Source: Owenia fusiformis (taxonomy: Eukaryota > Annelida > Polychaeta > Sabellida > Oweniidae). Taken from it: a stretch of DNA of 64,000 bases. Position numbers and translations under genes: made by a program. The notes below the pieces were generated by a model that worked only from the letters and a program-made list of their open reading frames with translations, had not been told where the DNA came from and ran no database searches. Positions 4,501 to 10,500 of this stretch are shown piece by piece (positions within the stretch are counted from its first letter, which is position 1; the number at the start of each line of letters is the position of its first letter). The stretch lies in the NCBI GenBank assembly GCA_903813345.2, contig CAIIXF020000010.1, positions 36,319,425 to 36,383,424 on the forward strand, in the 5' to 3' direction.

Positions 4501-7500
4501 TTATGAAAAACAGAGGCCCTTTGGTCCTTTGAACCATTTTGAACAGTAAGTCAAAGTAGGTAAAAAAAATGTTTCACCCATTGAAGAAAGTGGGCGAGGG
4601 AAAACATATTTAATAAAATATTATACCTTTTCGATATCTTCCTGCATATCATCCAGCCTGGCTTTCAATTCCTTGCATTCTTTCTCTGTTTTGGCAATAT
4701 ATTTCTTCCCTTTCTCATACTCATGGACAACCTGTGGAGAATTAAATATAAAAAACATTACTTTTTTCTATGTTAAAGAATACAGACATCAAAATGTTAC
4801 ATTAAGAATACAGGACATCAAAATGTTAGATTAAGAATTTCTACATTAAGAATACAGACATCAAAATGTTAGAATAAGAATTTCTATGTTAAAGAATACA
4901 GACATCAAAATGTTAGATTAAGAATTTCTATGTTAAAGAATACAGACATCAAATGTTAGATTAAGAATTTCTATGTTAAAGAATACAGACATCAAAATGT
5001 TACATTAAGAATACAGACATCAAAATGTTAGAATAAGAATTTCTATGTTAAAGAATACAGACATCAAAATGTTAGATTAAGAATTTCTATGTTAAAGAAT
5101 ACAGACATCAAATGTTAGATTAAGAATTTCTATGTTAAAGAATACAGACATCAAAATGTTACATTAAGAATACAGACATCAAAATGTTAGAATAAGAATT
5201 TTATTTGTATGCTATCAATACCTACCTTAAGGTGAAAAAATTGGAATGGCATTTGGAGCATATCTAATTCATTGCCCTTTGCCCACCTTAATATCATACC
5301 ATTTTTAATTTAATCAGTCTCACCTTGACTAAAATTGTAAAACTTGCACCAGCCAACATTTATGCATTTGTCAAAAAAAAGGTTTTGAAAAACATCAAAC
5401 AGGTTCAAAGCCAGTGAAATAAATCAGAGTGTTAATTCAATGTCTCCCTGAATCTCTTACTGTATTTCAATATTTTCTTTTTACCTGCCTGTCATCAAGT
5501 ACCACATATTCCCATAAAACTGGCATTGTCCAGGTGTCTGCAGATTGGAATACTCATTCAAAAGCACATGTTATTGACAAATATCAGACTACAGGTGCAG
5601 ATACAGGTAAAAAAGGCATTACCATGCAAACTGCCACCACCTGCCATTTGTAACATATCCTGAACTCTGAACACCAACTGCCATCACAAAAAAGTTGGAT
5701 GCCTAATAATAATATGTCACTACTTGTGGTGGTGACATCTGTCACCACTTGTGGTAGTGACATAATGAGCCATAATTTTAGGAGTTAATTCACTGCACTT
5801 CGTCTGACTTAATATCTTACCTCTTCACTGGTGGAGAAAATACAATCAGCTCTGGCTTAATATCTTACCTCTTCACTGGTGGAGAAAATACAATCAGCTC
5901 TGGCTTAATATCTTACCTCTTCACTGGTGGAGAAAATACAATCAGCTCTGGCTTAATATCTTACCTCTTCACTGGTGGAGAAAATACAATCAGCTCTGAC
6001 TTAATATCTTACCTCTTCACTGGTGGAGAAAATACAATCAGCTCTGGTTTAATATCTTACCTCTTCACTGGTGGAGAAAATACAATCAGCTCTGGTTTAA
6101 TATCTTACCTCTTCACTGGTGGAGAAAATACAATCAGCTCTGGCTTAATATCTTACCTCTTCACTGGTGGAGAAAATACAATTAGCTCTGGCTTAATATC
6201 TTACCTCTTCACTGATGGAGAAGATACAATTAGCTCTGGCTTAATATCTTACCTCTTCACTGGTGGAGAAAATACAATCAGCTCTGGCTTAATATCTTAC
6301 CTCTTCACTGGTGGAGAAAATACAATCAGCTCTAGCTTAATATCTTACCTCTTCACTGGTGGACAAAATACAATCAGCTCTGGCTTAATATCTTACCTCT
6401 TCACTGGTGGAGAAAATACAATCAGCTCTGGCTTAATATCTTACCTCTTCACTGGTGGAGAAAATACAATCAGCTCTGGCTTAATATCTTACCTCTTCAC
6501 TGGTGGAGAAAATACAATCAGCTCTGGCTTAATATCTTACCTCTTCACTGGTGGAGAAAATACAATCAGCTCTGACTTAATATCTTACCTCTTCACTGGT
6601 GGAGAAAATACAATCAGCTCTGGCTTAATATCTTACCTCTTCACTGGTGGGGAAAATACAATCAGCTCTGACTTAATATCTTACCTCTTCACTGGTGGAG
6701 AAAATACAATCAGCTCTGGCTTAATATCTTACCTCTTCACTGGTGGAGAAAATACAATCAGCTCTGGCTTAATATCTTACCTCTTCACTGGTGGAGAAAA
6801 TACAATCAGCTCTGGCTTAATATCTTACCTCTTCACTGGTGGAGAAAATACAATCAGCTCTGACTTAATATCTTACCTCTTCACTGGTGGAGAAAATGCA
6901 ATTAGCTCTGGCTTAATATCTTACCTCTTCACTGGTGGAGAAAATACAATCAGCTCTGCCTTAATATCTTACCTCTTCACTGGTGGAGAAAATACAATCA
7001 GCTCTGACTTAATATCTTACCTCTTCACTGGTGGAGAAAATGCAATTAGCTCTGGCTTAATATCTTACCTCTTTACTTGTGGAGAAAATACAATCAGCTC
7101 TGACTTAATATCTTACCTCTTCACTGGTGGAGAAAATGCAATTAGCTCTGGCTTAATATCTTACCTCTTCACTGGTGGAGAAAATACAATCAGCTCTGGC
7201 TTAATATCTTACCTCTTCACTGGTGGAGAAAATACAATCAGCTCTGGCTTAATATCTTACCTCTTCACTGGTGGAGAAAATACAATCAGCTCTGGCTTAA
7301 TATCTTACCTCTTCACTGATGGAGAAAATACAATCAGCTCTAGCTTAATATCTTACCTCTTCACTGGTGGAGAAAATACAATCAGCTCTGACTTAATATC
7401 TTACCTCTTCACTGGTGGAGAAAATACAATCAGCTCTGGCTTAATATCTTACCTCTTCACTGGTGGAGAAAATACAATCAGCTCTGGCTTAATATCTTAC

Positions 7501-10500
7501 CTCTTCACTGGTGGAGAAAATACAATCAGCTCTAGCTTAATATCTTACCTCTTCACTGGTGGAGAAAATACAATCAGCTCTGGCTTAATATCTTACCTCT
7601 TCACTGGTGGGGAAAATACAATCAGCTCTGGCTTAATATCTTACCTCTTCACTGGTGGAGAAAATACAATCAGCTCTGACTTAATATCTTACCTCTTCAC
7701 TGGTGGAGAAAATACAATCAGCTCTGGCTTAATATCTTACCTATTCACTGGTGGAGAAAATACAATCAGCTCTGACTTAATATCTTACCTCTTCACTGGT
7801 GGAGAAAATACAATCAGCTCTGACTTAATATCTTACCTCTTCACTGGTGGAGAAAATACAATCAGCTCTGACTTAATATCTTACCTCTTCACTGGTGGAG
7901 AAAATACAATCAGCTCTGGCTTAATATCTTACCTCTTCACTGGTGGAGAAAATACAATCAGCTCTGACTTAATATCTTACCTCTTCACTGGTGGAGAAAA
8001 TACAATCAGCTCTGGCTTAATATCTTACCTATTCACTGGTGGAGAAAATACAATCAGCTCTGGCTTAATATCTTACCTCTTCACTGATGGAGAAGATACA
8101 ATTAGCTCTGACTTAATATCTTACCTCTTCACTGGTGGAGAAAATACAATCAGCTCTGGCTTAATATCTTACCTCTTCACTGGTGGAGAAAATACAATCA
8201 GCTCTGGCTTAATATCTTACCTCTTCACTGGTGGAGAAAATACAATCAGCTCTGACTTAATATCTTACCTCTTCACTGGTGGGGAAAATACAATCAGCTC
8301 TGACTTAATATCTTACCTCTTCACTGGTGGAGAAAATACAATCAGCTCTGGCTTAATATCTTACCTCTTCACTGGTGGAGAAAATACAATCAGCTCTGGC
8401 TTAATATCTTACCTCTTCACTGGTGGAGAAAATACAATCAGCTCTGACTTAATATCTTACCTCTTCACTGGTGGGGAAAATACAATCAGCTCTGACTTAA
8501 TATCTTACCTCTTCACTGGTGGAGAAAATACAATCAGCTCTGGCTTAATATCTTACCTCTTCACTGATGGAGAAAATACAATCAGCTCTGACTTAATATC
8601 TTACCTCTTCACTGGTGGAGAAAATACAATCAGCTCTGGCTTAATATCTTACCTCTTCACTGGTGGGGAAAATACAATCAGCTCTGACTTAATATCTTAC
8701 CTCTTCATTGGTGGAGAAAATACAATCAGCTCTGGCTTAATATCTTACCTCTTCACTGGTGGAGAAAATACAATCAGCTCTGACTTAATATCTTACCTCT
8801 TCACTGGTGGGGAAAATACAATCAGCTCTGACTTAATATCTTACCTCTTCACTGGTGGAGAAAATACAATCAGCTCTGGCTTAATATCTTACCTCTTCAC
8901 TGGTGGAGAAAATACAATCAGCTCTGGCTTAATATCTTACCTCTTCACTGGTGGAGAAAATACAATCAGCTCTGGCTTAATATCTTACCTCTTCACTGGT
9001 GGAGAAAATGCAATTAGCTCTGGCTTAATATCTTACCTCTTCACTGGTGGAGAAAATACAATCAGCTCTGGCTTAATATCTTACCTCTTCACTGGTGGAG
9101 AAAATACAATCAGCTCTGGCTTAATATCTTACCTCTTCACTGGTGGAGAAAATACAATCAGCTCTGGCTTAATATCTTACCTCTTCACTGGTGGAGAAAA
9201 TACAATCAGCTCTGGCTTAATATCTTACCTCTTCACTGGTGGAGAAAATACAATCAGCTCTGACTTAATATCTTACCTCTTCACTGGTGGAGAAAATACA
9301 ATCAGCTCTGGCTTAATATCTTACCTCTTCACTGGTGGAGAAAATACAATTAGCTCTGACTTAATATCTTACCTCTTCACTGGTGGAGAAAATACAATTA
9401 GCTCTGGCTTAATATCTTACCTCTTCACTGGTGGAGAAAATACAATCAGCTCTGGCTTAATATCTTACCTCTTCACTGGTGGAGAAAATACAATCAGCTC
9501 TGACTTAATATCTTACCTCTTCACTGGTGGAGAAAATACAATCAGCTCTGGCTTAATATCTTACCTCTTCACTGGTGGAGAAAATACAATCAGCTCTGGC
9601 TTTAGCTTCATGGATGGCTGCATCAATCTCTTCCATATTGTCTGGGCATCGCTCAAATGCCTACAATAAAATCAAGATGATGTATATTCCCATTTTCTGT
9701 ACCTTCTCCCCTATTCTTCCATATCAGGGAAAGGATAAGGGTTTGGAGATAGGGGATAACAGAGTCTTGATTTAAGATAAAAATGTGTTCAATAAGATTA
9801 AGATCCCAGATTTAAGTCATAAATTACATCAAAATAGCGTGCAAACTTTGGGCAGACATTGTCATTCCGTTATGCCCAAACATCTCAGGAACACATAGGT
9901 ACTCGAATGATCTTGATTGGACTTCATGGTGCAGAGAAATCTGACTTTACACAATGGGTCCATGAAAAAATAAACAATGTCATGAGTCCCCTTCATGACC
10001 ATGACAAGTACATTTGGGACCATTAAGATCTGCGATCTGCTCAGAATCAACTCTATATATTTATTACTCATATTCAAAGCCTCGTGTACAAGGCTCAGAT
10101 ACTAAGGTTATATCTAAAGAAAGGGGATTCATAGCGTTCATTGTGGTTTTGATCAATTAGAACACACTTTGTTCCTCTTGTTTTTCAATATAATGCAGTC
10201 ACAAATCTTGACATTCTCTATTTCAAATTCTAACGACATGATACCAATATTGATATGAAAATTGCTTACTTTTTTCATGTCATTTGACAATTCTTCGTTC
10301 TCTCCCATGTTGCAGATTTTCTTTGCTGCAACCAGTAATCTTCTTGCTGATGCTTTTAAAGTGTCCAAACTTTCTTTCGTTTCGTCCAACTGATTCTATA
10401 AATATAATTATCATTTAAATAAAACTGCTGACTTTTAACACATTATCTAAAATTTTCCCTACGTTACAAATCTTTGTTTTGATGGTGGTCATCTTAAAAT

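What the first reader, a model, noticed from the sequence alone, without database searches (positions are those of the whole stretch)
5821..9612. 79 tandem, exact-length copies of an exon end plus its 5' splice site in SMC5
Seen directly: every 48-bp unit from 5821 to the true exon 21 end at 9565 contains exon 21 sequence followed by GAG|GTAAGATATT. The pre-mRNA would therefore display 79 consecutive strong U1 sites, of which only the first keeps the frame (the others reach TAA in four codons). The array probably began by microhomology-mediated tandem duplication at AAGYCAGA and was kept in length by unequal exchange. It could act as a U1 sink, a buffer for donor choice, or a source of NMD isoforms that lowers SMC5 dosage. 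An array of functional-looking splice donors of this size is, to my knowledge, unusual.
Basis: partly seen in the sequence, partly recalled or inferred. Interest (0 to 1): 0.92.

Follow-up and report, generated by a model that had tools for sequence, protein, structure and literature searches.

The report
Splice-site minisatellite ("mirage") in SMC5
An intron of the DNA-repair gene SMC5 begins with 79 head-to-tail copies of the end of the preceding exon and its splice signal; similar arrays recur at other exon edges of this (probably annelid) genome, and they are most likely a tolerated by-product of DNA copying rather than a working device.

Summary
In detail: 79 donors (AG|GTAAGATATTAA), all 78 spacings exactly 48 bp, on the minus strand at the end of a 96-nt SMC5 exon (SMC5 match E=2.3e-71). 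Only donor 1 gives an open mRNA. The array is not alone in kind. Genome-wide, splice-site words in 43-73-bp tandem spacing (2517, 1398 and, for an acceptor word, 1439 matches) outnumber five non-splice words (252-619). Of 15 donor arrays taken as listed, 14 begin at what I read as an exon end, against 2 of 11 evaluable control arrays spanning one; on homology alone the contrast (7 of 15 against 1 of 11) is not significant. Donor bases inside 11 arrays are no better kept than the rest of the unit. Best reading: a tolerated tandem duplication across an exon-intron boundary, a 'mirage' minisatellite as described in amphioxus, related to the donor minisatellite of human IFI6. U1-sink and dosage ideas have no support here. 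New, as far as I searched, are the copy number and the lineage (an annelid, probably Owenia fusiformis); the exon-edge bias needs an annotation-based test.

The parts
9565..9660 (-). SMC5 exon upstream of the array (96 nt, phase 0, [32 protein letters not shown]); its last 38 nt (9602-9565) are the exonic part of repeat copy 1
5803..9602 (-). tandem array, 48-bp unit, 79.2 copies (TRF bounds); unit = 35-38 nt of exon end plus 10-13 nt of intron start, the border being blurred by the microhomology
9553..9564 (-). donor 1 (GTAAGATATTAA), the one that keeps SMC5 open
5809..5820 (-). donor 79, last copy
9595..9602 (-). microhomology copy in the exon, AAGCCAGA
5803..5810 (-). microhomology copy in the intron, AAGTCAGA
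4732..9564 (-). host intron, 4833 nt
4627..4731 (-). next SMC5 exon (105 nt, VVHEYEKG...)
3505..3640 (-). degenerate second copy of the acceptor and start of the following SMC5 exon: a two-copy duplication at an exon start
39837..39937 (-). 51 bp x 2 duplication of a coding-looking exon end and donor (GATAAG|GTATGT); the exon has no Pfam match
39947..40195 (-). about 120 bp x 2 duplication of the acceptor and start of that same small exon

Best explanation
A 'mirage' minisatellite: a short tandem duplication across the exon-intron boundary, seeded at an 8-bp microhomology (one mismatch) and grown to 79 copies by unequal exchange or slippage. It is tolerated because the spliceosome can still use the outermost donor, the exon's own, and remove the rest as intron. 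Shown: anatomy, microhomology, mixed near-identical units, reading frame, similar arrays elsewhere in the genome, no preferential keeping of donors over 11 arrays. Inferred: that donor 1 is the one used in vivo, and that the array has little effect on fitness.
For: Microhomology 79 x 48 bp apart, with its mismatch segregating in the array. Unit types mixed, no lag with z>2. Same anatomy elsewhere: 14 of 15 donor arrays (all arrays among the places listed) begin at an open exon by my reading; homology E<0.01 in 7 of 15, Pfam having been run for 13 of 15. Acceptor side: 6 of 12 arrays run into an exon start by reading, 2 of 12 with E<0.01. Pooled donor rank 0.48 over 11 arrays, P=0.40. Three further two-copy exon-edge duplications in the same window. 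Amphioxus mirages reportedly do not disturb regular splicing (PMC3087553 passages; PMC3902484 passages).
Against: No RNA was available, so use of donor 1 is not shown. In SMC5 itself the donor is invariant (0 changes at 8 positions): rank 0.07, P=0.06; longest invariant run P=0.09. Most exon calls rest on my unblinded reading; on homology alone donor and control arrays do not differ significantly (7 of 15 against 1 of 11, P=0.08). Tolerance by itself does not explain an excess of arrays at exon edges.
Confidence: 0.8

Rival explanations
1. Functional donor array: dozens of U1 sites act as a sink, a donor-choice buffer or a poison switch that lowers SMC5 output through nonsense-mediated decay or nuclear retention.
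For: 79 of 79 donors intact; predicted U1 pairing -9.6 kcal/mol against -5.7 to -7.5 for four following SMC5 donors and -14.0 for the consensus; later donors give a stop. One pre-mRNA can carry two U1 snRNPs (PMC8724738 passages).
Against: Donors not preferentially kept across 11 arrays. An acceptor word is enriched in arrays as well. Similar arrays lie in unrelated genes (BRCT, Muted, IFT56, UreG matches). No RNA evidence.
Confidence: 0.07
2. Intron-birth or recursive-splicing intermediate: each unit also carries CTGAT...TTTTCTCCACCAG, so units could be removed stepwise or recruited as 7-nt microexons (TGAAGAG).
For: Branch-like CTGAT, pyrimidine stretch and AG in the unit; 41-nt intra-unit 'intron'. 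PMC3087553 proposes mirages as a route to new introns (passages).
Against: 41 nt is very short for a metazoan intron (recalled). Including TGAAGAG puts TGA in frame at once. 65 of 78 later units keep CTCCACCAG exactly.
Confidence: 0.05
3. Assembly artefact: the true copy number is one or a few.
For: Tandem arrays are often mis-sized; no reads were available here.
Against: 19 unit types spread through the array without block copies; many similar arrays elsewhere in the assembly.
Confidence: 0.05
4. The plus strand codes a 1295-aa repeat protein (5782-9669) and the SMC5 exon end is incidental.
For: Plus-strand frame open through the array.
Against: One open 16-codon frame, repeated, is cheap by chance; two Pfam matches only, both below their cut-offs with no stretch passing (E 0.004); the unit is explained by the SMC5 exon end.
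Confidence: 0.02

Closest known systems
Amphioxus 'mirages' (Adh3, globins Gb6/Gb9, troponin C, PGBD5)
   Same: Minisatellite-like tandem duplications spanning exon-intron boundaries, on donor or acceptor side, many copies with AG/GT signals, reported not to disturb regular splicing (PMC3087553 passages; PMC3902484 passages).
   Different: 79 copies here (globin Gb6 haplotypes have 6 and 3 units); probably an annelid rather than a cephalochordate.
Human IFI6 (6-16, G1P3) minisatellite
   Same: A minisatellite that supplies several splice donors to a transcript (title of Turri 1995 and a citing passage; the paper itself is not held).
   Different: Unit of 12 bp (recalled); there two downstream repeat units are used as donors (citing passage); here use is unknown and would give stops.
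Intron gain by tandem genomic duplication
   Same: A duplication carries a splice signal and part of an exon (PMC4974935, search listing only).
   Different: Here an existing intron is lengthened; no new intron position is created.

Membership tests
Mirage minisatellites | Tandem repeat unit spans an exon-intron boundary | tested here: met
   35-38 nt of SMC5 exon plus 10-13 nt of intron per unit
Mirage minisatellites | Unit size in the reported range (10-72 bp Adh3; 150-160 bp globins) | tested here: met
   48 bp; range from PMC3087553 passages
Mirage minisatellites | Occurs at donor and at acceptor sides in the same genome | tested here: met
Mirage minisatellites | Concerted evolution of units | tested here: met
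   97% match, mixed unit types
Mirage minisatellites | Regular splicing not disturbed | not testable with these tools
   no RNA data
Mirage minisatellites | Length polymorphism or somatic instability | not testable with these tools
   one assembly only
IFI6-type donor minisatellite | Downstream donor copies used to make isoforms | not testable with these tools
   needs RNA; frame predicts stops
Functional U1 sink | Donor bases kept by selection within arrays | tested here: not met
   mean rank 0.48, P=0.40 over 11 arrays; SMC5 alone rank 0.07

The most novel reading that the evidence does not exclude
Exon-intron boundaries are birth hot spots of tandem arrays in this lineage, through something tied to transcription or splicing (for instance breaks at R-loops near splice sites), so that perhaps a hundred or more genes (rough extrapolation from 11 arrays in two of 31 unit lengths) carry arrays of splice sites, and the spliceosome has to choose the outermost donor out of dozens of identical ones, against the usual preference for the intron-proximal site (recalled).
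Probability: 0.2. Interest if true: 0.8.

Novelty: new member of a known kind. Interest (0 to 1): 0.55.

Why it matters
Arrays of identical splice sites are natural experiments on how the spliceosome picks one site out of many, with copy number as the variable. An exon-edge bias of arrays, if it holds with full annotation, asks why minisatellites start or last at exon edges, and bears on intron growth and intron gain. Practically, such arrays mislead gene prediction: each copy offers a plausible exon end. The search listings I saw name mirages only in amphioxus; an annelid genome rich in them would make this a wider animal phenomenon.

Tried and rejected
U1-specific function: not taken as best reading because an acceptor word is enriched like the donor words and donors inside arrays change like other bases. 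Structured RNA that hides donors: the fold of 301 nt is unremarkable (z -1.09). Higher-order repeats: none found. Short-unit arrays (12-42 bp) show a smaller excess: 746 against 495 matches, 1.9-fold per word. Eight random 10-kb stretches held no 43-73-bp array with 3 or more copies, so a background rate for that class could not be set. Mitochondrial gene order for lineage: COX1 not found in the assembly. Not followed: exon numbering, the rest of SMC5, haplotypes, relatives (no eukaryote collection is held).

Results against my reading, or weak. Set A+B: L028 does not start at an exon; L021 and L024 are weak exons; L004 has only E=0.058 for tetraspanin; Pfam was not run for L021 and L028; six run exons had no usable match (L023, L024, L025, L026, L030 and, below 0.01, L004). 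Some of the 11 arrays have shorter true units (17 or 25 bp). Acceptor set: L050 (P450) 0.15, L055 (ankyrin) 0.047, L046 and L049 no Pfam match (in one search the wrong exon of L049 had been used); six of 12 show no exon. Nine short-unit arrays, hand-picked: three with homology-supported exon ends (UreG, tRNA_bind, SNF), one plausible (L017), two inside the intron (L015, L016), three undetermined (L010, L011, L018). Controls (12 fetched of 20 arrays that I count): L032 is array from end to end and was left undetermined; of the other 11, L033 (NUP155-like, 3e-13) and L039 (carbamoyltransferase-like, 0.22) span exon starts, L043 begins about 20 nt past an exon end (SNF), L042 begins at a stop codon after zinc fingers, L035 has an MBD match about 300 nt away; the remaining six gave no match with a passing stretch outside the array. 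So arrays in general lean to coding edges here. Fisher: 14/15 against 2/11 P=0.0002; strict 12/15 against 4/11 P=0.04; homology only 7/15 against 1/11 P=0.08, or against 3/11 with near-edge coding P=0.4. After this check I lowered the hot-spot probability from 0.25 to 0.2. Match counts are dominated by large arrays and are not independent events.
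Full report
The observation. On the minus strand of the window a 96-nt exon (9660-9565) ends in GAAGAG|GTAAGATATTAAG. From 9602 down to 5808 the sequence repeats with a period of exactly 48 bp; Tandem Repeats Finder gives 79.2 copies, 97% matches and no indels. All 79 donors read AG|GTAAGATATTAA; 77 of 79 have GAG before the cut. Of 78 full units, 37 are identical to the consensus and 13 of 48 positions vary. 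The exon and the four that follow, read in phase 0 and joined, match SMC5 of PDB 9lwi (E=2.3e-71; human by recall). In a search of the 498-Mb assembly with the exon end all 78 matches lay in this one array.

Frame. Donor 1 joined to the exon at 4731 keeps SMC5 open. Donors 2, 3, 4 and 79 were run in a script, and all give VRY-stop. Each unit also holds a 3'-splice-like stretch (CTGATTGTATTTTCTCCACCAG|TGAAGAG); using it puts TGA in frame at once. So each choice other than donor 1 that I tested ends the protein.

Origin. The exon holds AAGCCAGA (9602-9595) and the intron AAGTCAGA (5810-5803), 79 x 48 bp apart. The base at which they differ is the commonest polymorphism in the array: 53 C, 24 T, 1 G of 78. 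Nineteen unit types are mixed along the array, with no lag of repeated order (z>2) and no clear trend with distance from the exon, for which I made no formal test.

The class. I searched the whole assembly for three copies of a 7-letter word spaced as in arrays with 43-73-bp units. Donor words: AGGTAAG 2517 matches, AGGTGAG 1398. Acceptor word: TTTCAGG 1439. Five non-splice words: GAATGGA 619, GAGTGGA 317, GGACTTT 252 (the reversed controls of those calls), AGAGTAG 491 and GATGAGA 619. The means differ 3.9-fold, the closest pair 2.3-fold. As single words AGGTAAG is rarer than GAATGGA (62,892 against 80,055), so per word the excess is 5.2-fold; I did not count the other words singly. Large arrays dominate these counts.

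Do the arrays sit at real exon ends? Set A is every array among the 100 places listed of 2517 (4 arrays, first 5.2 Mb of contig C1). Set B is every array among the 100 places listed of 107 (11 arrays, spacing 50-51, some with shorter true units). By reading the sequence upstream, 14 of 15 begin at an open exon with an upstream AG; the exception is L028, and L021 and L024 are weak. Homology at E<0.01 supports 7 of 15 (Pfam run for 13): BRCT, Muted, WD40, DHC_N1, Got1/Sft2, ion channel and IFT56. Of 12 control-word arrays (12 fetched of 20) one could not be judged; of 11, 2 span an exon start, 1 starts just inside an intron and 1 starts at a stop codon. The controls were scanned in six frames where no exon had been seen. 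Fisher P is 0.0002 as read, 0.04 with a strict count, and 0.08 on homology alone. So the contrast rests mainly on reading, not on homology. All 12 acceptor-word arrays listed on C1 were fetched: 6 run into an exon start by reading (L045, L046, L049, L050, L054, L055), 2 with E<0.01 (myosin head, VWA). In the window itself three more two-copy duplications lie at exon edges, two of them on both sides of one small exon.

Function. If the donors worked as U1 sites under selection they should be kept better than the rest of the unit. I ranked the mismatch rate of the 8-nt donor window among all rotations of the unit in 11 arrays (12 tried; L014 gave no row at the chosen period). The mean rank is 0.48, P=0.40. 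In SMC5 alone it is 0.07. Ten of the 11 were found by their donors, a bias that favours conservation, and still none is seen in the pool. An acceptor word is enriched too, which a U1 role does not predict. I therefore take tolerance as the main account: the outermost donor is the exon's own, and exon definition is enough to choose it. That choice is inferred. It is not trivial, since identical tandem donors are often resolved in favour of the intron-proximal one (recalled).

What is known. PMC3087553 (passages read) describes minisatellite-like duplications of intron-exon boundaries in amphioxus globin genes and Adh3, called mirages, at either boundary, with splice signals in many copies, concerted evolution, length instability and undisturbed splicing. 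PMC3902484 (passages) adds PGBD5 and troponin C. Human IFI6 has a minisatellite that provides multiple splice donors (title and citing passages only). An earthworm metallothionein paper mentions fourth-exon duplications absent from the transcript, and minisatellites (PMC12783039 passages). My searches for annelid or genome-wide mirages showed no such report in the listings; the library lacks most subscription journals and both original papers.

Lineage. The annelid haemoglobin linker domain (PF16915) matches three places within about 15 kb of contig C6, one of them with a stop. That it is annelid-specific is recalled. Ten of the first twelve contigs, whose lengths I saw, are 32-62 Mb. Owenia fusiformis has 505.8 Mb in 12 chromosome-scale scaffolds (PMC9977687 passages). 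I infer an annelid, probably Owenia; this is not proven.

Verdict. Real, correctly described, of known kind, unusual in size and in its lineage. A possible exon-edge bias of arrays is the part worth pursuing. It could come from more frequent birth at exon edges, from longer survival because the selected exon copy keeps re-seeding the array, or partly from my choice of words and my reading of exons; the annotation test in the next steps would tell.

Noticed in passing
window 12736-18123 (+): 1795-aa open frame with about 34 tandem 36-aa Ser-rich repeats (108 bp) and a non-repetitive C-terminal part; the C-terminal 520 aa gave no Pfam match at E<=0.01, though a stretch recalls nucleotidyltransferases (recalled).
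   Followed up: partly
window 4765-5201 (-): A second array (44/28 bp) near the 3' end of the same SMC5 intron, 33 nt before the acceptor, with repeated CTAAC branch-point-like and pyrimidine-rich stretches.
   Followed up: no
window 39837-40195 (-): One small coding-looking exon with two-copy duplications of both its acceptor side and its donor side: possibly mirages at the earliest stage.
   Followed up: partly
L042 1021-1030 (-): A control-word array (43 bp x 4) that starts at the stop codon of a zinc-finger reading frame.
   Followed up: partly
L016: An HSP90-like exon (E 8.5e-6); the first array copy with intact AGGTAAG lies 390 nt past its donor.
   Followed up: no
L058 3234-4880, L061 5772-6303, L063 5015-6312: Random 10-kb samples hold arrays with units of 101-117 bp, close in size to each other and to the 108-bp coding array of the window; whether they are related was not tested.
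   Followed up: no
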